From Heliocidaris erythrogramma (lineage: Eukaryota; Echinodermata; Echinoidea; Camarodonta; Echinometridae), in the NCBI GenBank assembly GCA_025617745.1, contig CM046857.1:27188094-27252093 (forward strand): a DNA stretch of 64,000 bases, read 5' to 3'. Made by a program: the position numbers and the translations under genes. Below are positions 41,901 through 61,676 of this stretch, piece by piece (the stretch's first letter is position 1; every line of letters starts with the position of its first letter). A model generated the notes under the pieces. It had not been told where the DNA came from. It made no database searches and saw only the letters and a list, made by a program, of their open reading frames with translations.

Positions 41901-43599
41901 GCACAGAATGCATTGCCTACATGTATGCAAGTCATGTGCCCACCAGTCCTAAACGGAATTGGTCTACTTATGATCGGGAGTTTGGAGCAATTGTGTTGGC
42001 TGTGTGACATTTTCTCCTTTACATTCTTTAATAGCTCGAGATCACATCACTATCATTACCAATCACGATCTTTCAGTGACTAAAAGGTTTTAAGAGTGTT
42101 ACACTAGAAATACACAGTACTTACTTTGTAAGGCTTTCTCATAAGTTCTGCCCAGAGTAACAAGATTCCGTAATTCAGGGTTGAAGCTTTCTATCGTATG
42201 CTGTAAATAAAAAAAAAATAAACATATTGGTATTCTATGCAGTATTCCCATAAAAGTGCATGTACCTAATATTATTAATATTTCATAAGAAAAAAAAAAA
42301 TTCTTTTTCTTTTTTTAACCCTTTCAGTTTCAGGATAGGAATTATTTAAGGGCTAAATTGATCACATTTGATTTTCAAATCCGCAACAATATTTTTCTTT
42401 TAGTGCTACATGTACATGTACATGTAAGGTGTAATGTCTTTGAAAACAATATACATGGTTAGAAATATTGTTAAAAAGTTGAAAAAATTGCCAATTTGAC
42501 AAAAAAACAATGATTTTGAACTTCTCAATGTGTTGCCAATTTTAAGGATTTTAAAGCTTATTCTAGTTTTTAAAATTGCTAGCATAAAACGCAATACATG
42601 ATCATGCAACAAAAATGGACACAATGGCGGCTGCGTGCGACGGCGCGCGATACAACCACAATTGAAACTATACGTCGCCGATCGCGCGCGCCGTCGCACG
42701 CTGCCGCCATTTTATATCTGCATGACAAGAGGAGGCATGGATACACAAACACTGGTCAGTTCTCAGAAATTTTTTGTAAAAATATGTACCATCAAAAAGA
42801 CATACTAATACAAAACGTTTCCCTAGGAGGAAACGCTGTGGGGAAGGGACTGTTGGTCGCGGGAGTTATCAGAAAAGTGTTATTTCAGGGCATTTTCATG
42901 TCCTGCTAACCTGTGTTTTTTTACACTCACGAAGCTAATCCTGGCTACACACAACCCCATCCTAGCTCTAGAGTCTAGTCTACTCTAGTAGTAGTATAAA
43001 TGTTAAAAAATAAAGTTAGACCTAGATCTACATGTAACTTAGAAAGTTAGAGTTAAGTTAGACCCTACTTAATCATTACATTTGTCTTGCCTCTTGGACT
43101 TGGTCGACTGTATAAAAAAAAAAACTGTAGGCCTAGGCCTATCATTCAAATTACAAATGCGTACCGTAGTCGTACTCGAGGATCTAACTTTAATTACGGT
43201 ACAGAATTATCATGATTATTGCAATCCTATCACATCTTCATATCTAGAGTACCATAGTAAAAGAAAATTGAAATGAAACGAGAAACGACAAACGACCCTA
43301 TCTGGGTGGGATGCTGCGAAGCTAATTTCTGACCTGGACGCGTGCAATAGTAAACACAAAATACAACAACAATAGTCGAGACATTCGGACACCTGCCACA
43401 CCTTCCAGAGTCGAGTCGAGTCGAGGCTCGGCACGGCAGGCCTTCATGCTTCCACCCGCCCTCCAGACTAACTGTGTGGCTCAAAAGACAAAACGAAGCA
43501 AACATTTTCTATCTGATCACAGATATTCCGTACATTTCGATTGATTCTTACCCTGTAGACATTTTCTGTCATCCTATGAAGCTGATCTCCCGTCGCCAT
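1957..43599 (-). CDS. BAIAP2: BAIAP2/IRSp53-family IMD-SH3 adaptor (13 exons)
   Basis: The family links Rac/Cdc42 signalling to actin regulators and bends membrane outward through its inverse-BAR (IMD) domain at the plasma membrane. Thirteen exons join with consistent phase: 43552-43599, 42125-42200, 36703-36789, 30569-30630, 29631-29747, 28683-28838, 20197-20283, 14189-14284, 12990-13112, 5510-5885, 4799-4944, 3472-3611 and 1957-2482, giving about 679 residues. The IMD spans about residues 1-245 and includes [18 protein letters not shown], a basic KKLQKKTQK patch and [14 protein letters not shown] Gln/Pro-rich linker covers about 285-410, an SH3 domain about 437-496 ([28 protein letters not shown]), and a Ser/Thr/Pro tail follows. 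The start has A at -3 and G at +4, with an in-frame TAG three codons upstream. Human BAIAP2 is somewhat shorter, with the same IMD-linker-SH3 order. The C-terminus is uncertain: the terminal WH2-like segment known in some relatives was not found. BAIAP2 versus BAIAP2L1/2 cannot be settled; it is probably the single pre-duplication ortholog. Confidence 0.9.
3472..3611 (-). CDS. BAIAP2: BAIAP2-like exon 12 (second half of SH3)
   Basis: Encodes [20 protein letters not shown] and then [12 protein letters not shown], the typical end of an SH3 domain with the conserved Trp-Phe and GWFP-x-x-Y elements. The acceptor is TTCTTAG and the donor GTGAGT. A 0.5-kb hexanucleotide array lies only about 40 bases upstream of its acceptor. 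Confidence 0.92.
3654..4140. repeat. GGTGAT/GATGAT microsatellite, about 0.49 kb
   Basis: A near-perfect GGTGAT hexanucleotide array from about 3725 to 3940, flanked by degenerate GATGATGGT sequence. It lies in intron 11 of gene 1 just upstream of the SH3 exon acceptor. All frames stay open merely because the repeat lacks stop codons, so it is not a gene. Confidence 0.97.
4331..4472. mobile_element. Hairpin MITE C, copy 1 (CAGGGGAGCATTTCATCAAG)
   Basis: About 142 bp with inverse ends CAGGGGAGCATTTCATCAAG and CTTGATGAAACGCTCCCCTG. It shares the core TTATAAGCTACTGAA and GCTGAGAGCAAATTTGTCA with copies at 9573-9713 and 56219-56358. Confidence 0.85.
4500..4762 (+). mobile_element. 5'-truncated non-LTR retrotransposon tail
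   Basis: An open frame reads [20 protein letters not shown], then [12 protein letters not shown], then SIILSPHRP and a stop. This is the C-terminal tail seen in many endonuclease/reverse-transcriptase LINEs (typically GRP-x-x-TW-x-DNI-x-x-WTG). A TAGATAGATAGATA tail follows at about 4748-4761, as expected for a LINE 3' end. Only the tail survives. Confidence 0.75.
4799..4944 (-). CDS. BAIAP2: BAIAP2-like exon 11 (first half of SH3)
   Basis: Uses the TTTGTAG acceptor, which leaves the two bases needed to complete the alanine codon split with exon 10. It encodes [18 protein letters not shown] and then [20 protein letters not shown], the start of the SH3 fold. A CAG ten bases further in is out of phase with exon 10. 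The donor is GTAGGA, phase 0. Confidence 0.88.
5078..5154. mobile_element. 77-bp hairpin MITE D, copy 1 (GTCTGTTGAGA)
   Basis: Inverse ends TGTCTGTTGAGAAACAGAAG and CTTGCTCTCAACAGACGA flank AGGGCATT/AATGCCCTT. A second full copy is at 31975-32053 and a half copy at 19083-19110. Confidence 0.82.
5510..5885 (-). CDS. BAIAP2: BAIAP2-like exon 10 (Gln/Pro-rich linker)
   Basis: The longest internal exon, 376 nt. It starts [15 protein letters not shown], has a PPPP run, and a glutamine-rich tract at about residues 364-384 that mixes CAG and CAA codons, then a HHHLH run near the end. Such regions are usually disordered and bind SH3 or WW partners. The acceptor is CCAACAG and the donor GTACAT. It ends in phase 1. 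Confidence 0.82.
6329..6664. mobile_element. MITE E, copy 1 (GATAAAGTTGAGTTCTG)
   Basis: About 335 bp. The left end is AGATAAAGTTGAGTTCTG and the right end CAGAACTCAATCTTCTCTTTAA. The core has TTCGGCCCGAA and GAGCAATCCTTTTCAGGG, also found at 33573-34335 and 36225-36593. Confidence 0.85.
6930..7440. mobile_element. Diverged relative of the 15156-15755 element, interrupted
   Basis: Shares GATATCAAGTTGG, TTTGAGCA, the GTAGTTGTAA-like block and CTCTGTGA...CTTGC with 15156-15755. It is split by a separate MITE at 7042-7195. The boundaries are approximate. Confidence 0.6.
7042..7195. mobile_element. 154-bp MITE with CCCTTGTAAAAAAG ends
   Basis: Inverse ends CCCTTGTAAAAAAGAACCAT and GGTACTTTTTTACAAGGG. 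The centre has two tandem copies of a 30-bp unit containing ATGATAATTTGGTCAAATTA. It is inserted inside another element (6930-7440). Confidence 0.8.
8040..8211. mobile_element. Palindromic MITE, copy 1 (GGGGTGTTTCATAAAGC)
   Basis: About 172 bp, foldable along most of its length, with ends GGGGTGTTTCATAAAGCTG and CAGCTTTATGAAACACCCC. Its middle, GATCAGTTCTTGTGCTAAAT, is shared in inverse orientation with the copy at 59349-59517. Confidence 0.85.
8813..8858. repeat. CT dinucleotide repeat
   Basis: An uninterrupted run of CT of about 40 bases within intron 9 of gene 1. Confidence 0.95.
9573..9713. mobile_element. Hairpin MITE C, copy 2 (GCCCTGTTTCATAAAAC)
   Basis: Ends GAGCCCTGTTTCATAAAAC and GTTTTATGAAACAGGGCCC, with the shared core TTTGCTCTCAGCCAATCAGA. 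It is related to 4331-4472 and 56219-56358. Confidence 0.85.
10800..12045. repeat. Fold-back array of an ATTATGAATAGCG motif
   Basis: About 25 degenerate copies of a 20-30 base unit. Copies read GGTCGCTATTCATAA in 10800-11060 and 11530-11715, then the reverse complement TTATGAATAGCGACCCTC in 11765-12045. The two halves could form a long imperfect hairpin. A different element interrupts the left half at about 11066-11531. Confidence 0.85.
11066..11531. mobile_element. Element interrupting the fold-back array
   Basis: Begins near AAGAGCCCCAGGGGGCACGA, has GCTCACCCGAGG near the left end, and ends ACGGACGACGGACGACG...CTCAGGTGAGCT. GCTCACC and GGTGAGC are inverse. Such ends are common in marine invertebrate repeats; the family was not identified. 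Confidence 0.65.
12990..13112 (-). CDS. BAIAP2: BAIAP2-like exon 9 (linker)
   Basis: Encodes 41 residues, polar and charged, beginning [21 protein letters not shown] recognise no counterpart in human BAIAP2. Splice sites (CTTACAG and GTACGA) and phase 0 on both sides support it as a real exon, possibly an optional one. Confidence 0.75.
13490..13760. repeat. Dispersed repeat, copy 1
   Basis: Shares GATCCAGAATG, GAATAAGAGC, CAGTGAAGTCTCTAA and AATCACTATTTTTGTG in order with 19557-19860. A diverged direct copy of unknown family. Confidence 0.6.
14189..14284 (-). CDS. BAIAP2: BAIAP2-like exon 8 (IMD end)
   Basis: Encodes 32 residues including [17 protein letters not shown], corresponding to the human KLPLWQQACADPSKIPE end of the IMD. 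The acceptor is TCTCCAG, followed in the intron by a 0.3-kb GA-rich simple repeat. The donor is GTGAGT. Confidence 0.9.
14283..14602. repeat. GA-rich simple repeat
   Basis: Imperfect GAGAGA/GACAGA tract with a run of about 14 G. It lies directly upstream, in gene 1's direction, of the exon 8 acceptor, so it forms a very long pyrimidine tract on the transcript. Confidence 0.9.
15156..15755. mobile_element. TTAA-flanked inverted-repeat element, about 0.6 kb
   Basis: The left end, TTAA-AGGGAAATTCAACTCTGATA, and the right end, inverse of AAGGAAAGTCCACCCTGATA, both meet TTAA. Internal GAAGTTGG/CCAACTT repeats and a GCGAGCTCCTCTCCCAT block in both orientations make it largely foldable. Confidence 0.75.
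16636..16698. repeat. Telomere-like TTAGGG/TTAGAG tract
   Basis: About ten tandem units mixing GGGTTA and GAGTTA over 63 bases. This is the vertebrate and echinoderm telomere motif with variants, far from any visible chromosome end. Confidence 0.85.
17390..17770. repeat. Degenerate tandem duplication, about 200-bp unit
   Basis: Two copies share TACTACAGAAGT, GTGAAACAAATCT, AATG-x-CTCCAAAACTA and TTTTCTTGCTCA-x-x-GTTTTGTTGTGAG. A partial third echo is near 17990-18020 (CTCACGGTTTTTGTTGTCAG). Confidence 0.65.
18079..18597. mobile_element. Inverted-repeat element with AAACTTTAAGTT motifs
   Basis: The left end, GTTACGTTCACAGATGGGAG then CTAAACTTTAAGTT, is mirrored by AACTTAAAGTTTTAAATGAG then TCCCGTATGAACGTAGC. 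The AACTTTAAGTT motif recurs throughout and GTGGTT/AACCAC alternate inside. Confidence 0.7.
18985..19080. mobile_element. Partial Tc1/mariner-type MITE
   Basis: ATTATTAGACCACGCATGGT onward is about 90% alike to 22697-22790 through AAAAGCAAGGTATGATTG. The 3' end is missing. Confidence 0.7.
19083..19110. mobile_element. Half copy of hairpin MITE D
   Basis: TGTCTGTTGAGAGCAAGAAG followed by GGCAT matches one arm of the 5078-5154 element. The other arm is absent, so it is a broken copy. Confidence 0.6.
19557..19860. repeat. Dispersed repeat, copy 2
   Basis: Collinear with 13490-13760: GATCCAGAATG, GAATAAGAGCAATTC, CACTGAAGTCTCTAA, AATCACTATTTTCGTG, and an ACTATGAAGGAGTGGAAAAT block at its end. 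Confidence 0.6.
20197..20283 (-). CDS. BAIAP2: BAIAP2-like exon 7 (IMD)
   Basis: Encodes 29 residues, [20 protein letters not shown] onward, nearly matching human ALTEERRRFCFLVEKQC. This is the family's diagnostic block. The acceptor is CTTACAG and the donor GTGGGG is weaker than its neighbours. Phase 0. Confidence 0.95.
21368..21701. mobile_element. TIR element with CAGGGTGGTC ends
   Basis: CAGGGTGGTC at 21368-21377 is mirrored by GACCACCCTG at 21692-21701, a 334-bp unit without a coding frame. Beyond the terminal ten bases the arms are dissimilar. Confidence 0.6.
22015..22515. repeat. GA-rich tract with GTGAGAAAGCA units
   Basis: GAGAGA simple repeat in which GTGTGAGAAAGCACAGATCT recurs at least three times at irregular spacing, making a loose minisatellite. 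Confidence 0.85.
22680..22894. mobile_element. TA-flanked MITE (CAGCCATGGAAAAA)
   Basis: A 211-bp element: TA-CAGCCATGGAAAAATTATT at the left, and the inverse of CAGCCCTGGAAAAAAATATT and TA at the right. TAGACCAAGC occurs next to both ends. Tc1/mariner style. Confidence 0.82.
23884..23923. repeat. ATT trinucleotide repeat
   Basis: An ATTATT run within intron 6. Similar shorter runs occur near 10580, 32495, 35440 and 36000. Confidence 0.9.
24048..24520. mobile_element. TTAA-ended MITE, copy 1 (TTAACTCTTTCAGTCCC)
   Basis: Ends TTAACTCTTTCAGT and the inverse TTAACTCTTACTGTG. It is about 85% alike, in the same orientation, to 35487-35945, including CAATGTATATCAAAATTTTG and ATTTCAACATTAAACAATAG. 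Confidence 0.8.
26258..26566. mobile_element. GC-rich inverted-repeat element
   Basis: GACCCTGTTCTCATTAC at the left and GTAATGGGAATGAGGTC at the right are inverse. The interior is far richer in CpG than its surroundings and repeats GATCGCGCCA-like motifs. The boundaries are approximate. Confidence 0.6.
26805..27053. mobile_element. TTAA-ended MITE (TTAACCCCTTCCATGCC)
   Basis: Begins TTAACCCCTTCCATGCC and ends GGCATGGTAGGGGTTAA, a 249-bp unit. Similar end style to the 24048 and 35487 elements. Confidence 0.8.
27805..27995. mobile_element. TA-flanked MITE (CAGTGGAAACTC ends)
   Basis: A 187-bp element with CAGTGGAAACTC-x-x-TATAACGAG repeated in inverse at the far end, bounded by TA. It lies in intron 6 of gene 1. 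The internal TTGTTATATCAGGAATC is also palindromic. Confidence 0.82.
28683..28838 (-). CDS. BAIAP2: BAIAP2-like exon 6 (IMD basic patch)
   Basis: Encodes 52 residues with [16 protein letters not shown], the lysine-rich stretch that contacts acidic membrane lipids in this family (human KCQAELKKLRKKSQG). The acceptor is CATGTAG and the donor GTAAGG. Phase 0. Confidence 0.93.
29631..29747 (-). CDS. BAIAP2: BAIAP2-like exon 5 (IMD)
   Basis: Encodes 39 residues from [17 protein letters not shown] to SENKAKSE, the IMD helix corresponding to human ELLTQLEQKVELD. The acceptor is CATTCAG and the donor GTGAAT. Phase 0 at both ends. Confidence 0.92.
30569..30630 (-). CDS. BAIAP2: BAIAP2-like exon 4 (IMD)
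   Basis: Encodes [20 protein letters not shown], an IMD helix corresponding to the human LFQMAEVHRQIQ segment. The acceptor is TATGCAG and the donor GTAAGT. Its 62 nt restore phase 0. Confidence 0.9.
31975..32053. mobile_element. 79-bp hairpin MITE D, copy 2
   Basis: Ends CGTCTGTTGGGAGACAGAAG and its inverse CTAGCTCCAAACAGACG, with AGGGCATT and AATGCCCTT inside. It is homologous to 5078-5154. Confidence 0.82.
32283..32301. repeat. Poly-G tract (about 19)
   Basis: Uninterrupted G run, one of roughly twenty G or C tracts of ten or more in this window. Confidence 0.95.
33573..34335. mobile_element. MITE E, copy 2, split by a nested insertion
   Basis: The same ends and core as 6329-6664 (GATAAAGTTGAGTTCTGG, TTCGGCCCGAA, CAGAACTCAACCTTCTCG), but a 390-bp element at 33707-34096 interrupts it between AAATTT and CTTTGACCCAATCTCGC. 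Confidence 0.85.
33707..34096. mobile_element. Nested element with perfect 14-bp inverted repeats
   Basis: Begins AGGCTTTTTACACT and ends AGTGTAAAAAGCCT. Internally TAGTACGGG recurs several times in both orientations, including a hairpin at about 33738-33790, and there is a long C tract. It contains no coding frame. Confidence 0.8.
35487..35945. mobile_element. TTAA-ended MITE, copy 2
   Basis: The direct-orientation copy of 24048-24520. It starts TTAACTCTTACAGTGCC and ends near TTAACCCCTTGGCACAG. Confidence 0.8.
36225..36593. mobile_element. MITE E, copy 3, TTAA-flanked
   Basis: The clearest copy of the family: TTAA then AGATAAAGTTGAGTTCTGG, ending CCAGAACTCAACCTTCCCTT and TTAA. It lies about 110 bases below exon 3 of gene 1. 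Confidence 0.85.
36703..36789 (-). CDS. BAIAP2: BAIAP2-like exon 3 (IMD)
   Basis: Encodes [19 protein letters not shown], matching the human AAKGYFDALVKMGELASES region. The acceptor is ATATTAG and the donor GTGAGT. Its 87 nt keep phase 1, so the glycine at the next junction is split. Confidence 0.92.
39120..39300. repeat. Dispersed repeat, copy 1 (TTTCTTTTAGAACTGAT)
   Basis: Shares TTTCTTTTAGAACTGAT, GTTAGAGAATTATG-x-AGGAAA-like, CCCCATAAA and GGAGGGCTGG-x-GAAAAAA in order with 48995-49150. Confidence 0.75.
41811..42083 (+). mobile_element. Decayed Ty3/Gypsy-type RNase H fragment
   Basis: One frame reads [18 protein letters not shown], the signature of the RNase H domain in Gypsy-type pol (L-x-TDAS-x-x-GIGAVL). 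After a frameshift come [14 protein letters not shown] (usual Y-x-x-x-EKE-x-LA-x-V) and then [14 protein letters not shown] (usual F-x-x-x-TDH-x-x-L), with a stop between. No reverse transcriptase, integrase or LTR is adjacent, so it is an isolated fragment. Confidence 0.8.
42125..42200 (-). CDS. BAIAP2: BAIAP2-like exon 2 (IMD)
   Basis: Encodes [20 protein letters not shown] and onward, the first IMD helix and the most conserved block of the family. The acceptor is TTTACAG and the donor GTAAGT. Its 76 nt leave phase 1. A decayed retrotransposon RNase H fragment ends about 40 bases below its donor. Confidence 0.93.
42590..42912 (+). repeat. Dispersed repeat, copy 1, with GC-rich palindrome
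   Basis: Contains a palindrome at 42623-42711 (AATGGCGGCTGCGTGCGACG and its inverse), then GACAAGAGGAGGCATGGATA and a tail ending GGGCATTTTCATGTCCTGCT. An inverse copy is at 54105-54425. Confidence 0.85.
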
Positions 43600-49849: not shown

Positions 49850-49912
49850 ATGCAGGACACATACAAGAGGAGATACATATCGCTTAAGAGGAAATGTGAT
49901 TCACTGGAATTG
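49850..49912 (+). CDS. TFPT: TFPT-like exon 1 (start, coiled coil)
   Basis: Twenty-one codons, MQDTYKRRYISLKRKCDSLE and one Leu, ending in a GTAAGA donor in phase 0. An in-frame TAG sits three codons before the ATG. It was chosen because its YKRRY-x-x-LKRK motif is what should precede SNERVLNRL in TFPT relatives. The 6.1-kb gap to exon 2 is its weak point. Confidence 0.78.
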
Positions 49913-52900
49913 GTAAGAAAGAAAAAAGTACCGTACCGGTATTGGCGCAGCTGCAACTTGGACTAGTCCACTCCCGGGTACATTTCTGTAAAATAGTTGG
50001 TATTTTCTGTCGCATGTACTAAAGGTATGGGGGGGGGGGGAAATAAGATAAATATTTTAAATACTTGCTTTCAAATTCAGCCCTTAAAAATCTCACTCCT
50101 ACCTCAAATGGCCGTTAGGAAGAACTTTTGATATTTACAGCAAAATCCAAAGTCAAAATCTTGTCCAAAACCGGAGAAATCCCCGCCGATTTGTTTCGCG
50201 ATCGCGTATTGTTTACAAACTGCCGATGTCTTAGACTAAAATCGGCCAATATAATTTTTGTCCACGAAGAAACTCGGGATCGCAAGGGCACATCGATCTT
50301 TACGATCGCGCACACAGAAAATCGGAACTTTTCCGTGTACGCCATAGGGACCGAATTTTTGAGGACAAAACTCTTTTGGGGAGATGTCAGCGCCCGCGGC
50401 GACCAGGAAATGTACACAATGACTCCGATAGCTCGTTTCGCGAGAATCAACAGTAAATTGCGGATTTCATTTTTGTAAATATCTTTTCCAACATTGGTGA
50501 GTTGAATTTATTGTATTTCTTGGATATTTTGGGGTCGGTTTTTGAAAATTAAATGCCGATTTTGAGTGAATATTGGTGACTTTTGTGCAGTGGTGTTTTA
50601 AAAAGATGAGGTGTATGACTGCCTACATTATACACACGAAGTATAGGAATGTACCTATGAGTGGACTAGGCCTAGAAATTTTTAATTCAAGTTGCTTAAC
50701 TTACGACGTAGGGGTCTACCACTAGGCCTACATATTTTTCTACATGTGGGACTGCAGTAAAGTAGATTTTCGACAGTTTTGTCAACCAATGAAATACCGG
50801 TAGTCCAGTATAAACCTAGGCCTATGTCAATGAGAATTTTAATGACATGCATGCCTGATGGTATGTGTATGAAAATGTCGAAAATTCAATTTACAGGCAA
50901 ACCCGGAGTCGGAGAATAGGGGACCAGACGTAGCCAGGATTGGCTTCATCATTTGTTCATGAGACATGCATGACATGAGTGTAAAAAAAAAAAATTGGCT
51001 AGGGTAGCGCGCCCGGTATTCGGTCAGTTAAGAAGAAATCGCCGCTGATATGAATACCTATCTTTTTAAATTGACAATCTACCATCAAAAGAACCGCAAA
51101 ATTGTCCTTTAAATGCTTATCAAAATAATTTAAAACATGGAAACTTACCCCCAAAAATATCGCCGACAGAAGAAGGAGAAGTTTTCCGCCCAGTATTCGG
51201 TCACGCCGCCCACAATTCGGTCACGCGATAGTGCGCTGCATCTCGGGAGAATGATTTAACCATTTTTGTAATATTTCTGTGTTTTTAGGCTTTTTCTGTG
51301 GCTTCTATATATTCATACTTAAATGTATGAGATTTTTTATCCATTAAAATCCACAAATCGAAGATCTACAGTCAGAAATAATGAACTAAAAGTATTTCTA
51401 AAAAGAGCAAAGTGCGTTCGTAAAGCGCAAAGCGCGTCGGCGAAGCGCAAAGCGTCTTTATCGACAAGTTGCACACAAAGCGCATTGGCGCAAGGCACTC
51501 AATGTTGCCTGACCGAATACTGGAAGAGCGCCAGCTCACTGGCAGGGGTGAGGTATATATTCTCTTGCTTGTCGCTTAGATCGCCGCGATAGAGGAAAGA
51601 CCCGGAAGCTCCTCTTCACACACATACTAAATTCATTGCACCTGCACACATAGTTATTTCACTGTAGGCGTCTACATATGGCCATGCGTGTTAACTCACG
51701 CGCTAACGGAACCCGGAAGTGCGGAAACTTGGGTAACACTGACCAGTTTCGAGGGTATTTGGAGATCTTTTCCAGGGCGTCCGACCTGAATTGCTTTCAA
51801 CATTAAAGGTACCTCGTTCATGTGTTTGTTATGTGCAGGTTTCGAGCCTCAAAAGTTATTCATGAGTTCTTCACAGCTATTCAAACAGCTGCGTGACCGA
51901 ATTCTGGAATATGACCGAATACCGGGCGCGCGACCCTAGGCCTATAAAAAGCCTATAAATAATATATAGGTATGTGTAATGAAAATTTCAAATTGATTAA
52001 TTCTTGACAAATTTGGTATCAACAGAAAGGTCTAGAAAAGAGAAATGCAGTAGTTTTTGAATTATTCAAATTGGATGGATATTTAAGAAATTAGGGCATT
52101 TTACAAATCGCAAAACACTGGTTTTTTTGGTCGCGGGAATTGTATGATGGGGGGACCTAAAGCTACGCACTTTGTTTTCAGCAGCTAAAAGGTCACAGAA
52201 ATCACTGGCTTGTCACCAATTTCATTCCATATCCTGATTCTGGATATTCTAAAGTTGATTTGTGGAGAAAATTACGATGGGTGAATGTCAATAATGCACG
52301 AGTCAGGTCGATATCAATGCCGATGTCAAATTTTGTTCTTAAAAATGAAGGGGTCCTAAAGCTACGCACATGCAATAAATGAATGCAAATTGATATTGAA
52401 TTTGACTGTGTGTATCGCGTGTGTGTTTTAGCCTGATTTGAACGCGTTGCATTGCGCGTGTATGTGATTTGTATGGTGCGTAGCTTTAGGACCTGCGTAG
52501 CTTTAGGACCCCTTGCCATACAGTAATTCAATACGGCAAATAAAAATGTGACCAATATACATCCCAACCGACCTTAAAAATTACCTAACTTCCTTAATTT
52601 TCATCCTATCCTGAAAAGTTTGGTACCCCTGGAAAACATGAATTTGTCAACAAAAACAGAACAGCATTTCACGAACACACTTCCTACATGTATTTCTGAT
52701 AATTACCACTCATAGTTACATTCCTATACTTCGTGTGTAGAATGTAGGCAGTCATACACCTCAACTTTTTAAAACACCACTGCACAAAAGTCAACAACAT
52801 TCACTCAAAATGGGCATTTAATTTTCAAAAACCAACCCCAAAATATCCAAGAAATACAATAAATTCAACTCACCGATGTTGGAAAAGATATTTCCAAAAA

Positions 52901-55900
52901 TGAAATCCGTAATTTACTGTTGATTCTCGCGAAACGAGCTATCGGAGTCATTGTGTACATTTCCTGGTCGCCGCTGACATCTCCCCAAAAGATTTTTGTC
53001 CTTAAAAATTCGGTCCCTATGGCGTACACGGAAAAGTCCCGATTTTCTGTGAGCGCGATCGTAAAGATCGATGTGCGCTTGCGATCCCGAGTTTCTTCGT
53101 GGACAAAAAGTTTATTGGCCGATTTTAGTCTAAGACATTTGCAGTATGTAAACAACACGCGATCGCGAAACAAATCGGCGGGGATTTCTCCGGTTTTGGA
53201 CAAGATTTTGACTTTGGATTTTGCTGAAAATATCAAAAGTTCTTCCTAACGGCCATTTGAGGTAGGAGTGAGATTTTTAAGGGCTGAATTTGAAAGCAAG
53301 TATTTAAAATATTTATCTTATTTTTCCCCCATACCTTTAGTACATGCGACAGAAAATACCAACTATTTTACAGTAATGTAGCCATGAGTGATAATTACCT
53401 TAATATGGTATATTGCCATAATATTTTGATGAAGAAAAACAATTGTCTATTAATGAAATTTAGCATCGAAATCTCATCACTTTTGTATATCGATCGTCAA
53501 AATTCACATGCTAACGCCAACGGGTTAACCCATGGATCTCCGCCGCCGCTGCCGGCGGAAGCCGACGTTGCTTCACGGTGGAGCTCCTGGGTGAGCTAAC
53601 GTGTATACATACTAGTTCTGACATGGAAAATTGCGCAAAGTAAAAAAAGTATTTCGCAACTATAAATTTACATTAAACTTTCATAATGTGTTAAGTATTC
53701 ATGAAAATGAATTTGTAAATAATTGAAATCAATTAAATCACTTACCTTCATGAAAAATAATGATGATTATGATGACCCAAAATTATCAGGGTAGTTCAGG
53801 CCAATGTGAAACAACGTCTGGAAATCCTTTTGACAAAATTTTTTTTTCACACACTAGTTTGTGGTCTCAGCTCTTCGTTGATACCCTCTTTGTGCACATT
53901 GACATGCAAATACGAGCACAGCGAAAGCTTTTGTCAGGGTACCCCTCACAGCATAACCCGAAAGCTGGTAGAAAACGGAAACACAGTTTTGGGACCACTT
54001 TCGCGATGCAAGCGCACCGGGCATTTCACATACCTACTATATATACGCCTTTGACATCACGAAGGCAGGCGTTCATCCCCAGCAATCAAATTGCGCACGG
54101 GTTAGCAGGACATGAAAATGCCCTGAAATCACACTTTTCTGATAACTTCCGCGACCGACAGGCCCTTCCCCACAGCGTTTTCTCCTAAAGTCCTAGGGCA
54201 ATGTTTGGAATTAGAATCTCTTAGTTTTAGATATTACGTATATCTACCAAAAAATCCCCAAAAAGATCATAAGAAATTTCAGAGAACTCACCAGTGTTTG
54301 TGTATCCATGCCTCCTCTTGTCATGCAGATATACAATGGCGGCTGCGTGCGACGGCGCACGCTGTTGGTGACGTATAGTTTCAATTATGGTTGTATCGCG
54401 CGCCGTTGCACACTTACTCTTTAGAGTATCTGGAATAATATGAAATTAATCATTAGTGGAATATTATTAAAATGATTAGGCTTGATAAAATCTGAGCCGT
54501 CTGGCCTTACATGCTGTCAGTGTATATATAATATTGTGTAAAAATGAAGCCCATGGTAGTCGCACCCACGGACGCTAGATGGCGCTATCGCGCAAGTACA
54601 CGGATTGTCAATGCGTGATTCGGCCCGCTATCCATGCACACACTTCCGATACCGCTTCCGATACCACAGGCATAGGCGATTGAATCTGAGATTTTTTCTT
54701 TCTGTGATTGGTCCCCCTATGTTTATCAATGACATATTTTGCATGTCTGTGTGTTCATCGACCGGGGATGCCCTTTGCATCCCACCAAACCCAGGATTTT
54801 TTTCCCTGAAGGAGCTAAGAAGTGGCGGTATGTATGCAATTTTAGGCATTTTTATCGCTACTTACCTTGTTCTTGTATAGTTTGAGTGGTTGATTTAGTG
54901 AAATGTGTCAGAATCTTTGTATTTTATGGCAGTTGAGTTTGTTATCTATCGATGTGAGAGGCATAGAAATGGGCTTGTCATGCAGTTAGCCCTTCGATTT
55001 TGGGTTTTGACTATCGATAGTACATGCCTAACATAGCAACGAATATTTGAGCCATCTTTGTGATAATTGGAATATTAAGCATTATTTTAAGGCATGATTT
55101 GTGACTGTGAGTGCTGTTTTTATTTTTTTGTGGGAGTGACTACCCACAGGGAAATGCCAGACTCATTTTCCCCCATTGACTCAGTGTTAGACTAGAAGCG
55201 TATGGCCATACGCTTTCGTAAATGGGAGTATTCAGTCACAGATCTTAATAATAGCATTATATATTTGAAAACCTTTCTATACTTGGCTGTTTATTAAATC
55301 CTTTTGAACATCATTATACAAGACAGATATCAAAATTCAACAATTTATTAAACCAAGCCTCCACAAAGTCACCAAATGCCTTTAAAGAAATTCTTGTTAA
55401 ATTTTAGGTCATATCTTACATGTACATGTTCATGTAGGTGTGCAGACATGCAGACACAGGCTCCCCATCATACTCTGGATAAGTATTTCTCAGATATCTG
55501 TGTGTTCGTGGATTATTCTCATCTCAGACCACTGAGACTAACAACGAGACTAAGATAAGAGACGTCTAGCTGTTACAAATTGGAGAACATTACATTGAGC
55601 AATCCTGAATGGAGACTAACAATCACATTGACAGTCAACATAATTTCTGTAGGGCTGCCTGGAAATTGCCTCCATCGTGGATCGTGGTAAAACTTAAAGT
55701 GATTGCGCAATAATATATCCCTCTATAGTGCAGGAATGCCCTAGAGACTAGACAATATTATATACATGTTCGAACATATGACAAACATGACGAACAACTA
55801 CCACCCTACAACCCCATTAGAGCACATACCAAACAATACGCAGGCACTCATAATTTCCATCTACCATCACCAAGTGGAACCACCTGAGTGACAGCATCGT

Positions 55901-58900
55901 GAACTCATCATTTACCAGCACATTCAGAAAGGCCATGCTTGGTGTGACTGATAGGACTCTCTTAGCACTCCCGCGCCCTCTCAATCCATTTTTATGTCAG
56001 AGATTTATAGAATTTTTATTTGTTTTGTTTTGTATTTTTTCGTTTCTCAACTCCCTTTCAGAGTAATGAAAGAGTTCTGAACAGACTGTGCCATGTCAAG
56101 AAATATATTCACAAGCTTTCTAGAGAAAGAAGGTAAGTGGTACAGATTATTCCTCCAATTGTGACCCTGCTACATCTTTGTTGAAAAGAATCCTGGAGCA
56201 GTTGTTGATGGAGATTACAGGGGGGCGTTTCATCAAGTGTCTTGTCAGTGATTTTACTAACAAATTTGCTCTCAGCCAATCAGATGCAAGGATTTTCAGT
56301 AGCTTATAACAGTAGCTTATAACTTGTCACTGATGACAAGTTTTATGAAACAGGGCCCAGGTACATGTACATGTGGAATCACCATCAAGGTGTTTTAAAT
56401 TAGTAGATGTGATTTGGAAATTTGACTGGTGGAGATGAGGTCAACAATTTTTCTATTGTTTAAATTTTCATAATATTTGTTCAGTATGGATGATTCTTTC
56501 CAAAACATTGTTTATTGAGTATTGATTATTCACCTTATGTTTGGTTGTATAGATCTATTTAAATTGTAAGGTGAAACCAGCATCCTTTTTTTTCCTTCTT
56601 AATAATTGTTAATTTGTTTATAACAAAAACATTTTTACTTTCGTTCTTTTTCTAATTCTCCGCTTTGTTTGTTCTTTATAGGGGACTTGCAAAGAAGCTG
56701 ACAGAACTTGGAGATGAATTCAAGAAGAGTGATCTGACTGTTCCTCTTGAGGTAAATTCATTCATGATATCTTCATTTTGCTTCTGGGACCCTACCCTTT
56801 TATGATATTTTACCTCTAGACAACTACATTGTACCCCCAGACAACTGGCCTCTTGGATAATTACTTCCCCACTTAGAAAAAAATAATGAAACCCTGTCAT
56901 ACCACTACCTAGGAGCTAAAGACATTTGGCAGTAATTGTCTGTCAGGTAGTTGTGTCCGTAATTTTCCTAGTAAGGAACTTGTCTGAGATTGGTGATTGT
57001 CCAGAGGTAGTTATCAGTAGGGAAATTGTCCTTTTTTGGGGGGGGGGGGGTGGGGGCAGCATTCACAGAATCTTCAAATTTGTGTGCACAATATGTAGAT
57101 GGTATGAACAATTGATTTATAGTAAAATATTGATAAAAGAGAAAGATTGAAATGACTTTTTCTTTTAAACCATAATTTATATAGATCTGTAAATTTGACT
57201 GGGGCTATTTTGGTATCATTTGCCAGTCGCCAACCCTGTCTTTAACAATTATGTTATGGCTGTACAGGATGAACTGCCTGGTGCTATGACGGGAGCATCA
57301 GAGAGCCCATCTTCAAGTGGACCAGCCATAGGAGAAAACATGGGAGGCTTCAGTCCATTCATCCAAGGGGGACCTGTCAAAAGTGAGGAGACGGTCTCCT
57401 CGCAGGAACAGCCGCAACCCATCGTGGTCCAAGTCAAATCTGGCCGGAAGAAGCGTTCTAGAGATGTTGGCAAGCCAGAGAGAGAAAAAGGTAATGTATT
57501 ACATGTATACCATCAGGTTGCTATGTGAACACATTGCAACATTTCTGGCCAGTATCATGCCATCATAAAAGAATTTTTATGCCTCCGCCCACCGTAGGTG
57601 GTGCCGGAGGCATTATGTTTTCGGGTCGTCCGTCCCCTTTTCGTTCTCGCGATAACTTCAAAACCGTTTGGCGGATCAGTTTGTAACTTGGCCCATGTAT
57701 GCATATGGGAGGGACGATGAACTGATTAGATTTTGGGGTCTCAAGGTCAAAGGTCAAAGGTCATAGAAGTCATTATATACATAAAAATGGTTCGTTCTCG
57801 CGATAACTTCAAAACTGTTTGGCGGATCAGTTTGTAACTGGGCCCATGTATGCATATGGGAGGGACGATGAACTGATTAGATTTTGGGGTCTCAAGGTCA
57901 AAGGTCATAGAGGTCATTATATACATAAAAATGGTTCGTTCTCGCGATAACTTCAAAACTGTTTGGCCCATGTATGCATATGGGAGGGACGATGAACTGA
58001 TTAGATTTTGGGGTCTCAAGGTCAAAGGTCAAAGCTCAGAGGTGTCATTATGTACATAAAAATGGTTCGTTCTTGTGATAACTTAGGAACCGTTTGGCGG
58101 ATCAACTTCTAACTTGGCCCATGTATTCTTATGAGAGGAACGATGAACTGATTAGATTTTAGGGTTTCAAGGTCAAAAGTCAGAGGCGTCATTATGTACA
58201 TAAAAATGGTTCGTTCTTGCAATAACTTCAGTTGTTTGACAGATCAACCTCCAACTTGGCCACGTATGCATATGTGAGGGACGATGAACTGATTAGATTT
58301 TAGGGGATCTCAAGGTCAAAGTTCAAAGGTCATAGAGGTCATTATATACATAAAAATGGTTCGTGATGTATGGAGTCTAGGCCTACCTATTTTAGAAATT
58401 TCAAGGGGACAGTAGTCTATTTGCTATAAAATAAAATTTCCTTGGTGTATCTGATGATTGTAAGTCATCAATGGTAATTAAGTTTTTTATTTGACAATAA
58501 AATGAAATAAATTTTCTGTCTCCTGTGCTTTTGAATTGAAAAGATTTGTAATTTTGATGGCGAATCCTTTTTAAAGTGTACATGTATGCCATACATTGCC
58601 AATCTGGTGATGGCGGAGACATAAATTCCGACCGCGCGTGGTCGGAGATTCATCTAGTTCTTTATGTGATTTGTATATGTATAAAGGCAGTAAGGGGTTA
58701 TAAATTGTTGAAAGAGGTAGTTTTCTTAGGGAGTCGTCGTCGTCTGGAGGAAAGGTGGGAGAAGTATTTAGCCACGGATTAGTAACACCACAGAGAGAGG
58801 GAGAGAGAGAAATGAAGGGGGAAGGGGAGAGAGAGAAAGAGCGAGAGAAAGCGGGGGGGGGGGGGGGGAGAAAATGTGTGAAACTCTTCCTGGAGGCTCC

Positions 58901-61676
58901 TTATAAAGTCTTTTGACATCACTTACATGTATAATCAATGATTCATCCTCCTGGCAGATCCCAACGCCCCCAAAAAGCCTGCCAATGCCTTCCTCATGTA
59001 CTGTCAACAGGAGAGACAGAAGGTACAGGATGGTGAAGGCAACGGTATCTACTCTGCAGACCTGAGCCATCAAGATCTTACCAGACAACTTGCTAAGCAG
59101 TGGAAGTTCCTCAGTGAGGAGGAAAAGAAGGTGAGTGAGATGGATAGATAGATATATACAGTTGGGCCCAAAAGTTTACGTATACATGGTAGAAAAACAA
59201 TATACAATTTTACAACTTCACTCATTCCTGCAAACTTCTCTCCTCTTTAGGACAGAAAAGTTTGGTCTCTGCTTAATGTGTATGTAGAGTGAAACCTGTG
59301 TATAAAGACCGTGCAAGGGAGACAAGAAAAGTGGTCTTTATGACCAGTGGGGTGTTTCATAAAGCTGTTCGTAAAGTTACGAATGACTTTACGAACGACT
59401 GGAACATGTTCTTGGGTGCTACACTAATCAGATTCTCAATCATTTAGCACAAGAACTGATCACCTGTCATTCATAAAGTCGTGCGTAACTTACGAAAAGC
59501 TTTATGAAACACCCCCCAGGAGGTCTTTCTCTAGTTCCTTTAATGTGCATTTCAATAAGAAACTCCTAATACCCCGACTCCTAATAGGAATGATTTAAAG
59601 TTGGGAAAATGTGAGGTAAATTGTTTTTCTTCCAGTTGGATGTAAACCTTTGGACCCAACTGTAGATAGTCTGTAGACTAATTGATACATGTAGATAGAC
59701 AGAAATACAGGTAGACTGAAAGAAGTGAGCCATCAACACCTTACCAGACTGCTGGCTTGGCAGTGGAAGTTCTTTGATTAGGCTGAATGGAAATAACCTG
59801 GATAGATAGATAGATATTGCATAGCAATGTAGAAAGACTGATAGTCTCCTATTATACCAGTTACATTCTCCACCTTGCATCAAGAACAAAAAAATTATAA
59901 CACATTGGAATAACCAAACAAACAAGCATGTGTAAGAATACCATTGTAACCTCTGCCAAAATGTCTGTTTCATTAACTGGATAATTAATTGTTATACCCC
60001 CGCCAAACGAAGTTTGAACGGGGTATATAGGAATCAGTCAACGGTTGGGCGGTCGGTCGGTCGGTCTGTTGCAAATCTTGCGGATCGAACTACGTCCTCA
60101 GTTTTTGACCAAAGCTCATGAAATTTGGTACACACATTGGTCTTGGTGGGAAGATGTGCAAGACATATTTTTCTGATGAGTTGGAATCTGCGTTGCCGTG
60201 GTAACGGCATATTTATGGCAGAAAATCAAGGAAACACCTTGCGGATCGAACTACTTACTCAGTTTTTGACCGAAAGTCATGAAATGTGGTACACACATTG
60301 GTCTTAGTGGGAAGATGTGCAAAACATATTTTTCGGATGAGTGGGAATCTGCGTTGCCATGGTAACGGCATATTTATGGCAGAAAATCAAGGAAACACCT
60401 TGCAGATCAAACTACTTCCTCAGTTTTCGACCAAAAGTCAAGAAAGGCTGTTGTCACGGGGTGGGGGTATTAATCATCATCTTCAGTGATATTTCTAGTT
60501 GTATATATCTCTTCTCTGTCTATTTCTCTTTGTCATTAGCATTACTACCTGATGTATGAAAAGGAGAAAGATCGATACGACAAGGCAGTCAAGAAGTATG
60601 CCAAGGGAGCTGGAAGCGACAAAAAGAAAACCGCTCGGGATAATGGAAATGATGGCGATTCGGAGACGATAGACGTGGTGAAAATGGGCCAGGAGAAGGA
60701 CTGGAGGCCAAAAGATTTCCAAGGGGAAAAGATTACCTTAAAGACATCCCACAGCAATGAAGATCAAACCATTGATGTGGAGAAGGATGAGTTTGAGTTC
60801 ACTGATCCTCCAGGCATAGCGGAAGAACCCAAGATTTGCCTGGAGAAGATTGATAAGAGCAAGCTCTTTGACAAAGCCAGGCTGTTTGGATTACCTAGTT
60901 TGGACTCACAAGAACAAGAGAGCAGAGGAAATAAAGCAGAGGCAGGCGGGAAGCATCTTAAAGATCTCTTCGCAAAGACAGAAATAAGGCCATTACCAAG
61001 GTCACCGAGAACAGACTTCAAAGGACCGGCCATTCTGGAGATTGCAACTGGTCGCAAATCTGCTTCACCGACCATCTTGAGTCACGCAGCTCCCAAGATG
61101 TTACCAGAAGCTCCAATAAGACCGTCTATGGATCTGAGCATCAAGGAACTCGTTGGTGCGAGACCAAGCACCTTCGAGGTCAGAAACCCTGCAATGATGG
61201 AGCTGAAGAGTAAGGCTGAGGAGAGAACGGTGCTGGCATCGGCTCTGCGGAATAAACCAATGTTTGACATGAAGATGCGATCAAGCGCAGATTACACCAA
61301 GCACAAACCCATCATAGATGTTACAGGGCCATCTGGTGATGCCTCAGACCCATGGGGTATGGTGTCCTCAGAGGCTAAAAGCAAGTTAACTGTTGAGATG
61401 AGAAATAGGGTCGGTGCTGATCAGGATAAACCTAAGACCTTGATAGACTCTAACCCCAGGGCCTTTGTAGATTCAAAGACCAACCCTCTGAGTGAATTGA
61501 GGAACAAGACTGTTGCTGTCTCAGAGACTGCCAAGTCTGCTCCTTCCTTAGAATCTAAGGTCAGGGGATCACCTGAAACCATGAGGAGGTTGTCTTTGGA
61601 CAACAAGAGAGCAGTGGTAGAGCTTAAGAAAATCCCAGTGGATCCTTCTGATGATCCCTATCATTTTGATGATTAA
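49850..61676 (+). CDS. TFPT: TFPT (INO80F)-like protein with Nhp10-type HMG box (6 exons)
   Basis: Probable DNA-binding subunit of the INO80 chromatin remodeller, acting in the nucleus. Exons 49850-49912, 56062-56132, 56682-56751, 57268-57490, 58958-59130 and 60540-61676 join in phase to 578 residues. Residues 5-65 form a basic coiled coil (YKRRYISLKRKC, SNERVLNRLCHVKK, RERRGLAKKL) followed by GDEFKKSDLTVPLEDE. From memory this aligns with human TFPT, which has VNERVLNRLHQV and GDDYRASQFTIVLEDE. A basic GRKKRSRD patch precedes an HMG box at about 143-225 (DPNAPKKPANAFLMYC, QLAKQWKFLSEEEKKHYYLM). The box resembles yeast Nhp10 (DPNMPKRPTNAYLLYC) more than HMGB proteins. A long charged, low-complexity tail ends in DDPYHFDD. 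Human TFPT is about 250 residues and lacks the HMG box. The start has A at -3 and an in-frame TAG three codons upstream. A different HMG-box family with a chance coiled-coil match is the less likely alternative. Confidence 0.87.
50999..51939. mobile_element. Nested element with 28-bp inverted repeats
   Basis: CTAGGGTAGCGCGCCCGGTA then TTCGGTCA is mirrored by TGACCGAATACCGGGCGCGC then GACCCTAG. GACCGAAT or ATTCGGTC occurs six times across the unit, three near each end. It sits in the centre of the 3.4-kb palindrome. Confidence 0.82.
52149..52503. mobile_element. Small element with CCTAAAGCTACGCA repeats
   Basis: GGACCTAAAGCTACGCAC at 52151 and GGTCCTAAAGCTACGCAC at 52349 are mirrored by GCGTAGCTTTAGGACC at 52467 and 52485. 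This makes a doubly nested inverted-repeat structure inside the larger palindrome. Confidence 0.75.
54105..54425 (-). repeat. Dispersed repeat, copy 2 (inverse)
   Basis: The reverse complement of 42590-42912: AGGACATGAAAATGCCCTGA first, then TATCCATGCCTCCTCTTGTC, then AATGGCGGCTGCGTGCGACG. It lies in intron 1 of gene 2. Confidence 0.85.
55800..55990 (+). mobile_element. LINE C-terminal fragment
   Basis: One frame reads FPSTITKWNHLSDSIVNSSF then TSTFRKAMLGV. This fits the F-P-R-T-I-x-x-W-N-x-L-P-x-x-I-V tail found after the reverse transcriptase in CR1/L2/Jockey-type LINEs. An upstream stop in the same frame shows decay. Confidence 0.7.
56062..56132 (+). CDS. TFPT: TFPT-like exon 2 (NERVLNRL coiled coil)
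   Basis: Encodes SNERVLNRLCHVKKYIHKLS and then RER. This is the signature block shared with human TFPT. The acceptor is CTTTCAG and the donor GTAAGT. Its 71 nt leave phase 2. Confidence 0.92.
56219..56358. mobile_element. Hairpin MITE C, copy 3
   Basis: Begins CAGGGGGGCGTTTCATCAAG, ends TTTTATGAAACAGGGCCC, and carries the core TTTGCTCTCAGCCAATCAGA. It is in intron 2 of gene 2, 86 bases after the exon 2 donor. Confidence 0.85.
56682..56751 (+). CDS. TFPT: TFPT-like exon 3
   Basis: Encodes RGLAKKLTELGDEFKKSDLT and then VPLE, the end of the coiled coil and the conserved GD-x(5)-S-x-T motif. The acceptor is TTTATAG and the donor GTAAAT. Its 70 nt complete phase 0. Confidence 0.92.
57268..57490 (+). 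CDS. TFPT: TFPT-like exon 4 (linker, basic patch)
   Basis: Encodes DELPGAMTGASESPSSSGPA, a Ser/Pro/Gln-rich linker and then VQVKSGRKKRSRDVGKPERE. The basic patch corresponds to GRKRRR in human TFPT and could be a nuclear localisation signal. The acceptor is TGTACAG and the donor GTAATG. Ends in phase 1. Confidence 0.9.
57491..58957 (+). other. Intron 4 of gene 2 (1.5 kb)
   Basis: Almost filled by the tandem-repeat element at 57572-58625, followed by GA-rich sequence and a G tract at about 58853-58868. No exon was seen. Confidence 0.65.
57572..58625. mobile_element. TIR element carrying five tandem 145-bp units
   Basis: TTTATGCCTCCGCCC at the left and GGCGGAGACATAAAT at the right are near inverse. 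Inside, units start with TTCGTTCTCGCGATAACTTC at about 57642, 57792, 57937, 58067 and 58211, each with ACGATGAACTGATTAGATTT and AAGGTCAAAGGTCA. The repeated frames are a by-product of the repeat. Confidence 0.85.
58958..59130 (+). CDS. TFPT: TFPT-like exon 5 (first two-thirds of HMG box)
   Basis: Encodes 58 residues from DPNAPKKPANAFLMYC to WKFLSEEEKK, helices 1 and 2 of an HMG box. The acceptor is TGGCAG and the donor GTGAGT. A decayed partial copy of this exon lies about 0.66 kb downstream in the next intron. Confidence 0.95.
59015..59155 (+). repeat. Source copy of a duplicated exon-intron segment
   Basis: This part of exon 5 and its donor side, ending in the GATAGATAGATA run, is the intact partner of the decayed copy at about 59700-59815. 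It is entered so that the duplication can be read as a pair. Confidence 0.7.
59159..59662. mobile_element. Tc1/mariner-type nonautonomous element
   Basis: Ends CAGTTGGGCCCAAAAGTTTAC and its inverse CAGTTGGGTCCAAAGGTTTAC, flanked by TA on both sides. This is the terminus style of Tc1/mariner transposons. It has no transposase frame, holds a second MITE at 59349-59517, and separates exon 5 from its decayed copy. Confidence 0.8.
59349..59517. mobile_element. Palindromic MITE, copy 2 (GGGGTGTTTCATAAAGC)
   Basis: A hairpin element of about 169 bp with ends GGGGTGTTTCATAAAGCTG and the inverse. It is nearly the reverse complement of the copy at 8040-8211 and is inserted inside the TA-flanked element at 59159-59662. 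Confidence 0.85.
59700..59815 (+). pseudogene. Decayed partial copy of the HMG-box exon
   Basis: From 59728 it reads SHQHLTRLLAWQWKFFD and then TAG at 59779-59781. It parallels SHQDLTRQLAKQWKFLSEEE of the real exon. Nucleotide similarity continues past the exon end through the donor region into the shared GATAGATAGATA run, so genomic DNA was duplicated and not an mRNA copy. The donor GT has been lost (AATAACCTGG), so it should not be spliced in. Confidence 0.8.
59995..60460. repeat. Tandem repeat, about 160-bp unit, with hairpin head
   Basis: A hairpin head, ATACCCCCGCCAAACG...CGGGGTAT, and a GGTCGGTCGGTCGGTC run precede two and a half units. The units start with GCGGATCGAACTAC at 60083 and 60241, degenerate at 60403, and contain CATGAAATTTGGTACACACA and CGTTGCC-x-TGGTAACGGCA. 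Confidence 0.85.
60540..61676 (+). CDS. TFPT: TFPT-like exon 6 (HMG helix 3 and long tail)
   Basis: Starts HYYLMYEKEKDRYDKAVKKY, completing the HMG box, then runs 350 residues of charged low-complexity sequence to a TAA. The tail has a recurring Arg-Asn motif near residues 415, 436, 498 and 521 (EVRNPAM, ALRNKPM, VEMRNRV, SELRNKT), Ser/Pro sites (PRSPR, SASPT), and an acidic end DDPYHFDD. I recognise no domain in the tail. Confidence 0.93.
   Translation, partial: HYYLMYEKEKDRYDKAVKKYAKGAGSDKKKTARDNGNDGDSETIDVVKMGQEKDWRPKDFQGEKITLKTSHSNEDQTIDVEKDEFEFTDPPGIAEEPKICLEKIDKSKLFDKARLFGLPSLDSQEQESRGNKAEAGGKHLKDLFAKTEIRPLPRSPRTDFKGPAILEIATGRKSASPTILSHAAPKMLPEAPIRPSMDLSIKELVGARPSTFEVRNPAMMELKSKAEERTVLASALRNKPMFDMKMRSSADYTKHKPIIDVTGPSGDASDPWGMVSSEAKSKLTVEMRNRVGADQDKPKTLIDSNPRAFVDSKTNPLSELRNKTVAVSETAKSAPSLESKVRGSPETMRRLSLDNKRAVVELKKIPVDPSDDPYHFDD

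What the first reader, a model, noticed from the sequence alone, without database searches (positions are those of the whole stretch)
49850..61676. One protein joins a TFPT coiled coil to an Nhp10-type HMG box
Exons 1-4 match animal TFPT (SNERVLNRLCHV, GDEFKKSDLTVPLEDE, basic GRKKRSR), and exons 5-6 encode an HMG box with Nhp10-style features (DPNAPKKPANAFLMYC, DLTRQLAKQWKFL, YYLMYEKEKDRY). TFPT and Nhp10 are both INO80 subunits but are usually treated as unrelated, animal-specific and fungal-specific respectively. This gene suggests they are one family and that the vertebrate protein lost the HMG box. The comparison uses remembered human and yeast sequences.
Basis: partly seen in the sequence, partly recalled or inferred. 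Interest (0 to 1): 0.88.

Follow-up and report, generated by a model that had tools for sequence, protein, structure and literature searches.

The report
Sea urchin TFPT with HMG box
A sea urchin gene encodes one protein that joins the part shared with vertebrate TFPT to a DNA-binding HMG box like that of yeast Nhp10, which suggests that two parts of the INO80 chromatin machine thought to be unrelated may be one ancient subunit.

Summary
Confirmed: one six-exon plus-strand gene (49850-61676, GT-AG introns, phases 0,2,0,1,0) encodes 578 aa with Pfam INO80F at residues 5-51 (43.5 bits, cut-off 25.1) and an HMG box at 147-220. The join is real: sea urchin, sea star, crinoid and sea cucumber proteins share it. 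The N-terminus is orthologous to fish TFPT (E down to 7e-9), with three shared intron positions and phases and a 58-residue helix in the Asterias and Sardina models. Of 83 hits in a TFPT-directed search, 82 carry INO80F, none an HMG box. The box scores higher with Nhp10, recalled sequence, than with any single-box PDB chain (54.9 against 41.7 bits; ultrafast bootstrap 81). But the Nhp10 coil matches Pfam INO80F only below cut-off (21.4-23.1 bits), and an echinoderm-fish profile does not see it. So: TFPT orthologue with HMG box, firm; common origin with Nhp10, likely; loss in vertebrates, plausible, not polarised. Passages read call the Nhp10 module yeast- or species-specific.

The parts
49850..49912 (+). 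Exon 1: start codon and first 21 residues (MQDTYKRRYISLKRKCDSLEL), start of the INO80F helix; phase 0 donor
   Evidence: in-frame TAG nine bases before the ATG (sequence printed); S. purpuratus P0001 starts at the same Met
56062..56132 (+). Exon 2: core of the INO80F/TFPT coil (SNERVLNRLCHVKKYIHKLSRER-R); phase 2 donor
   Evidence: same intron positions as fish TFPT
56682..56751 (+). Exon 3: end of the INO80F coil and the conserved GDEFKKSDLTVPLE; phase 0 donor
57268..57490 (+). Exon 4: DE plus low-complexity linker and basic stretch SGRKKRSRDVGKPEREK; phase 1 donor
58958..59130 (+). Exon 5: HMG box helices 1 and 2 and start of helix 3 (DPNAPKKPANAFLMYC...EEEKK)
   Evidence: helices by alignment with the Asterias model
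60540..60599 (+). Start of exon 6: HMG box helix 3 (HYYLMYEKEKDRYDKAVKKY)
60600..61676 (+). Rest of exon 6: low-complexity C-terminal tail and stop codon
61653..61673 (+). C-terminal motif DPYHFDD, conserved as DPYxFD in echinoderm relatives

Best explanation
The gene is the echinoderm orthologue of TFPT (INO80 subunit F) and carries a DNA-binding HMG box of the Nhp10 type behind the coil. The N-terminal helix of about 58 residues most likely docks the protein into the N-terminal module of the INO80 remodeller, as TFPT is thought to do in vertebrates and Nhp10 does in yeast. The HMG box, tethered by a basic flexible linker, most likely grips extranucleosomal DNA, raises nucleosome affinity and feeds the linker-length sensor, as reported for the Nhp10 HMG box. 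The simplest history is an opisthokont subunit 'coil + HMG box', seen today as Nhp10 in yeast and as this protein in echinoderms, from which the line to fishes (vertebrates) lost the exons after the basic linker. Shown here: one gene, both domains, TFPT orthology, conservation in four echinoderm classes. Inferred: membership in INO80, DNA binding, common origin with Nhp10, direction of the change.
For: Gene model, 578 aa. Pfam INO80F and HMG_box above cut-off. Both domains precomputed for 7 of the 9 family members and for both Apostichopus proteins. Window residues 1-75 against 7 fish TFPT sequences chosen: 31.6-53.4 bits, E 0.055 to 7.3e-9 for a database of 5.8 billion. Intron positions and phases before (V/S)NE, inside ERR and after LE agree with those read from fish retained-intron isoforms. 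Helix of 58 residues in the Asterias and Sardina models. Window box: recalled Nhp10 54.9 bits, best single-box PDB chain 41.7. Echinoderm box profile: Nhp10 60.2, HMGB1 B box 51.9-52.0, NHP6A 47.9, TOX 39.4. YYxxY in 7 of 7 echinoderm boxes and Nhp10, 0 of 12 other boxes. Split {7 echinoderm + Nhp10 | 12 others} has ultrafast bootstrap 81. Nhp10 N-terminus matches INO80F at 23.1 bits, 0 of 9 reversed or shuffled controls do. Nhp10 box mutations lower nucleosome affinity and alter spacing (PMC8163753, passages).
Against: A profile from echinoderm and fish coils alone gives Nhp10 1.4 bits; 1102 of 5000 plain shuffles and 1234 of 4977 scored heptad shuffles do as well; the single window sequence gives 0.2 bits. 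The Pfam match of Nhp10 stays below the gathering score. An AP2+HMG protein of unnamed source (P0010) ties with Nhp10 against the box profile (60.1), though not with the window box (42.7). Chains with two or three HMG boxes reach higher summed scores (up to 56.4, 79.8, P0011 77.1). The bootstrap of 81 is moderate. No chordate other than fishes, no other invertebrate phylum and no database fungal Nhp10 was sampled. In yeast the box's part in DNA sensing is minor beside the Arp8 module, and the module is dispensable for sliding (PMC12624141, passages). I found no interaction data for the echinoderm protein.
Confidence: 0.68

Rival explanations
1. Independent fusion: the gene is TFPT, but an echinoderm ancestor gained an HMG box from another HMG gene; Nhp10 in fungi is a separate coil + HMG protein, and the likeness of the two boxes is convergence or chance.
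For: The coil of Nhp10 is not found by an echinoderm-fish profile; the box tree is only moderately supported (81); P0010 scores like Nhp10 against the box profile.
Against: The window box is 13 bits closer to Nhp10 than to any single-box PDB chain; the order coil - basic linker - box is the same; Pfam INO80F picks out the Nhp10 coil, below its cut-off, at the N-terminus, and the weak echinoderm-fish match falls in the same register; both TFPT and Nhp10 are INO80 subunits (PMC3275488, passage).
Confidence: 0.22
2. A generic coiled-coil HMG protein that only resembles TFPT and is no INO80 subunit in echinoderms.
For: No interaction data; weak matches of the same helix to INO80E and other coils.
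Against: INO80F is matched 18 bits above its cut-off; conservation with fish TFPT runs past the Pfam domain to LED; three shared intron positions with fish TFPT.
Confidence: 0.07
3. Two neighbouring genes, or an annotation chimera, read as one.
For: Large introns (6.1 kb between exons 1 and 2) with many repeats.
Against: All junctions are in phase; both domains sit in one protein model in four echinoderm classes; P0003 (595 aa) and P0006 (317 aa) come from contigs of only 2072 and 1904 bases, too short for such introns.
Confidence: 0.02

Closest known systems
TFPT / INO80F (Amida, FB1), vertebrate INO80 subunit; Pfam PF24245
   Same: INO80F coil, conserved stretch up to LED, basic KKKR stretch, intron positions, modelled 58-residue helix
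   Different: Fish TFPT (169-241 aa) ends after the basic linker: no HMG box in 83 of 83 hits, no DPYxFD tail in the six fish sequences aligned
Nhp10, yeast INO80 subunit (recalled sequence)
   Same: N-terminal coil, basic linker, one HMG box with NAxLxYC and YYxxY
   Different: Coil match below the INO80F cut-off; shorter loop between HMG helices 1 and 2; no long tail
S. pombe C28F2.11, listed as a predicted Nhp10 orthologue (PMC2614481, table passage)
   Same: The crinoid relative P0009 bears the source name 'HMG box-containing protein C28F2.11-like'
   Different: Sequence not examined here
HMGB1/2, NHP6A, SSRP1, TOX HMG boxes
   Same: HMG fold and, in most, a DPNAPK-like start
   Different: Lower single-box scores; S instead of N in the first helix; no YYxxY

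Membership tests
TFPT / INO80F | INO80F domain (PF24245) above its gathering score | tested here: met
   43.5 bits against 25.1
TFPT / INO80F | Sequence match to vertebrate TFPT beyond the Pfam domain | tested here: met
   Residues 4-72 align with P0018 60-128, 46.2 bits
TFPT / INO80F | Shared intron positions and phases | tested here: met
   Three of three in the coil region; fish positions inferred from read-through isoforms P0091, P0097, P0098, P0099, not from fish genomic DNA
TFPT / INO80F | Subunit of INO80 | not testable with these tools
   Needs purification
Nhp10 | Single HMG box behind an N-terminal coil | tested here: met
   helices in the Asterias relative
Nhp10 | HMG box nearest to Nhp10 among HMG families | tested here: inconclusive
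   Best single-box score and shared residues, but recalled Nhp10 and bootstrap 81; P0010 ties in one test
Nhp10 | Coil homologous to the Nhp10 coil | tested here: inconclusive
   Pfam 21.4-23.1 bits, below 25.1; echinoderm-fish profile 1.4 bits
Nhp10 | Binds the Ino80 N-terminus and DNA | not testable with these tools
   Experiment
HMGB / TOX | HMG box nearest to HMGB or TOX | tested here: not met
   Single boxes: HMGB1 B 51.9-52.0, TOX 39.4 against recalled Nhp10 60.2 bits

The most novel reading that the evidence does not exclude
TFPT and Nhp10 are one subunit. The N-terminal module of INO80, described as yeast- or species-specific, has a common opisthokont core of coil + HMG box; the vertebrate line removed its DNA grip by losing the last exons, so that DNA sensing there must have moved to other subunits. 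Echinoderms keep the ancestral form in an animal.
Probability: 0.6. Interest if true: 0.75.

Novelty: new variant of a known kind. Interest (0 to 1): 0.62.

Why it matters
A review table lists Nhp10 and Amida (another name of TFPT, recalled) as unique to yeast and human INO80 (PMC6770637, table passage), papers call the Nhp10 module yeast- or species-specific (passages), and one orthology survey places Tfpt in mammals, amphibians and fishes (PMC9252792, passage). An animal TFPT with an Nhp10-type box would link the two complexes part by part, predict where TFPT sits on human INO80, and allow a direct test of what the HMG box adds to spacing and DNA-length sensing.

Tried and rejected
The alignment search with the HMG box cut out (A2) was meant to reach vertebrates and fungi; its 7 hits are echinoderm relatives or fragments like them, probably because words from the linker filled the candidate list (it missed P0008, whose N-terminus was in the alignment). 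The last protein search used a query that held a hybrid fragment of my own design to widen its reach; it returned fish TFPT, and its E-values are flattered by the design, so the homology claim rests, which used the window's own residues 1-75. An echinoderm-fish profile against the Nhp10 coil failed. The structure search added only 'HMG fold' (78 matches with E up to 10, none with E up to 0.001, for a model of mean pLDDT 60). Gene-order support was not found: the neighbours recognised among six ORFs scanned are an IMD-domain gene and a reverse-transcriptase remnant. The idea of two adjacent genes was rejected on phases and relatives.

Dropped rows: P0098 (retained intron) was left out of the coil profile. 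P0001 and P0003 boxes, in the profile A3, were left out of the tree. Of the 83 hits, nine were read and seven were scored. Of the 12 hits, nine are family members (P0005 is an exon-6 fragment without a precomputed domain; P0002 starts inside the coil and has the HMG box only) and three (P0010-P0012) are other HMG proteins. Of ten control sequences printed, nine were scanned.

Full report
1. The gene. Reading the window and splicing by script gives six exons on the + strand, 49850-49912, 56062-56132, 56682-56751, 57268-57490, 58958-59130 and 60540-61676. All introns are GT-AG, the phases are 0, 2, 0, 1, 0, and the product has 578 residues. A TAG lies in frame nine bases before the ATG (letters printed), and the S. 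purpuratus protein starts at the same methionine.

2. Two known domains in one protein. Pfam finds INO80F (PF24245) at residues 5-51 with 43.5 bits (cut-off 25.1, E 3.4e-11) and an HMG box at 147-220 with 50.1 bits (cut-off 25.4, E 3.9e-13). The box ends in exon 6, which then encodes a tail of some 350 low-complexity residues ending in DPYHFDD.

3. The join is old and real. The protein search gave 12 hits. Nine belong to the family, 7 of them with both domains precomputed: S. purpuratus LOC115918167 (85% identity over the full length), Diadema antillarum, Asterias rubens, Antedon mediterranea, Anneissia japonica, and two of unnamed source (P0003, P0006). Of the other two, Lytechinus pictus (81%) has a model that starts inside the coil, and P0005 is a fragment. 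By class (Apostichopus looked up, the rest from general knowledge) these are sea urchins, sea stars, crinoids and sea cucumbers; brittle stars were not seen. P0003 and P0006 come from contigs of 2072 and 1904 bases, far shorter than the 11.8 kb gene, as expected of spliced transcripts; the tool does not say what the source 'lgn' is. The window itself is probably from a sea urchin near, but not identical to, Strongylocentrotus and Lytechinus (inference from 85% and 81% identity).

4. Exons 1-4 are TFPT. Residues 1-75 of the window protein, as a single query, match seven fish TFPT sequences taken with 31.6 to 53.4 bits (E 0.055 to 7.3e-9 for 5.8 billion sequences; the weakest is P0098, which has a retained intron). 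The match runs past the Pfam domain to the LED stretch. Fish isoforms that read through introns (P0091, P0097, P0098, P0099) place introns before the V of VNEKIL (phase 0), inside the second R of ERR (phase 2) and after LLE (phase 0); the urchin introns 1, 2 and 3 lie at the same aligned places with the same phases. This is my inference from protein models, not from fish genomic DNA. AlphaFold models of the Asterias protein and of Sardina TFPT both show one long helix of 58 residues (5-62 and 52-109), most of it with block mean pLDDT of 90 or more, in models whose overall mean pLDDT is only 60 and 64. The window protein itself was not modelled.

5. Fish TFPT has no box. In one search, 83 of 138 candidates scored; 82 of 83 carry INO80F and 0 of 83 an HMG box; the named species are ray-finned fishes as far as I recognise them. 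The query held a designed fragment and a length window of roughly 164-521 aa, so this is no survey of all animals or of all vertebrates. Fish TFPT ends shortly after a basic stretch (KKKRHR) that aligns with the urchin basic stretch just before the box.

6. The HMG box. The fold is as expected (helices 168-188, 199-212, 215-243 in the Asterias model; the 50 PDB matches shown of 78 are HMG boxes). Against solved structures the window box scores best, among chains with a single box, with HMGB1 (41.7 bits), then SSRP1 39.7, NHP6A 35.1, TOX 29.4; chains with two boxes reach up to 56.4 in sum, 39.4 for the better box (60 of 81 matches shown). With a profile of nine echinoderm boxes Nhp10 scores 60.2 (best domain), HMGB1 box B 51.9-52.0, NHP6A 47.9 and TOX 39.4; an AP2+HMG protein of unnamed source ties with Nhp10 in this test (60.1) but not with the window box (42.7). 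YYxxY in the third helix occurs in 7 of 7 echinoderm boxes and in Nhp10 and in 0 of 12 other boxes; N in the first helix occurs in the same eight and in 2 of 12 others (SOX2, P0010). In a tree of 20 boxes the split of seven echinoderm boxes plus Nhp10 from the other 12 has ultrafast bootstrap 81, the echinoderm boxes alone 69; seven of the 12 are recalled sequences.

7. The coil and Nhp10. Pfam INO80F matches the recalled Nhp10 at residues 7-45 with 21.4 bits (whole protein, E 2.6e-4) or 23.1 bits (N-terminus alone, E 7.9e-5), just below the cut-off of 25.1; none of nine controls (one reversed, seven heptad-shuffled, one shuffled) matched. Against this, a profile of 12 echinoderm and fish coils gives 1.4 bits, and 1102 of 5000 plain shuffles and 1234 of 4977 scored heptad shuffles do as well; the window coil alone gives 0.2 bits. 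The seed of the Pfam model is not visible here; it may contain fungal sequences, in which case its curators have already drawn the two together. The coil link is therefore suggestive only.

8. How it probably works. In yeast the Nhp10 module is bound to the Ino80 N-terminus at the distal side of the linker DNA footprint (PMC8163841, passages). Point mutations in the Nhp10 HMG box mimic loss of the whole module, lower nucleosome affinity and change spacing behaviour, but its part is minor beside the Arp8 module (PMC8163753, passages), it has no major role in reading DNA shape, and the module is dispensable for sliding (PMC12624141, passages). By analogy the echinoderm protein would dock by its helix and hold linker DNA by its box. 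That is inference; I found no interaction data. The C. thermophilum complex was expressed with proteins called HMG, FHA, ZnF, Iec3 and Ies1 (PMC9733932, passage), and human INO80 has MCRS1, an FHA protein (recalled); the pairing HMG-TFPT and FHA-MCRS1 would fit. A precedent for an unrecognised counterpart is YY1 and Ies4.

9. What is in print. Passages call the Nhp10 module yeast-specific (PMC12624141) or species-specific, a table lists Nhp10 and Amida as unique subunits (PMC6770637), and Tfpt orthogroups are reported in mammals, amphibians and fishes (PMC9252792). Nine searches of the open-licence library were made. Three papers were listed as holding Nhp10 together with TFPT or Amida: two list the names in tables without relating them, and in the third 'amida' is 'amidated'. 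I saw passages of nine papers in all; the other papers were seen as listings only, among them the nine that hold TFPT, INO80 and HMG. Nothing seen states that TFPT and Nhp10 are related or that an animal TFPT has an HMG box; most subscription papers are not held, so this is weak evidence of absence.

10. Verdict. Observation confirmed. TFPT orthologue with an HMG box: about 0.95. Common origin with Nhp10: about 0.65-0.7. Loss in vertebrates: about 0.6. The finding is a new variant of a known subunit that bridges two complexes described as different.

Noticed in passing
window 59726-59817: Decayed partial copy of the end of exon 5 and its donor side (59063-59155) lies in intron 5 (local alignment score 67, best of 500 shuffles 28), with a stop in the old frame (read by eye).
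   Followed up: partly
window 49969-53390: Intron 1 holds a fold-back element with arms of about 690 bases in three pieces, 94-96% complementary; by eye a smaller element with its own inverted ends (about 51010-51940) sits inside it.
   Followed up: partly
window 61653-61673: C-terminal DPYxFD motif kept in the echinoderm proteins seen whole, absent from the six fish TFPT sequences aligned and from recalled Nhp10; purpose unknown.
   Followed up: partly
window 28320-28838 and 36608-36910, minus strand: Exon pieces of an IMD (I-BAR, IRSp53/MIM-type) gene; the first match is below the Pfam cut-off, the second above it.
   Followed up: no
window 41766-42080, plus strand: Remnant of a reverse-transcriptase RNase H domain.
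   Followed up: no
window 57686-58364 and 60077-60445: Tandem arrays (units 275 and 161 bases) in introns 4 and 5.
   Followed up: no
window 49850-56132: The TFPT helix also matches Pfam INO80E weakly (15.9 bits, cut-off 27.8), as does the Asterias protein (15.3 bits): INO80E and INO80F may be related coils.
   Followed up: no
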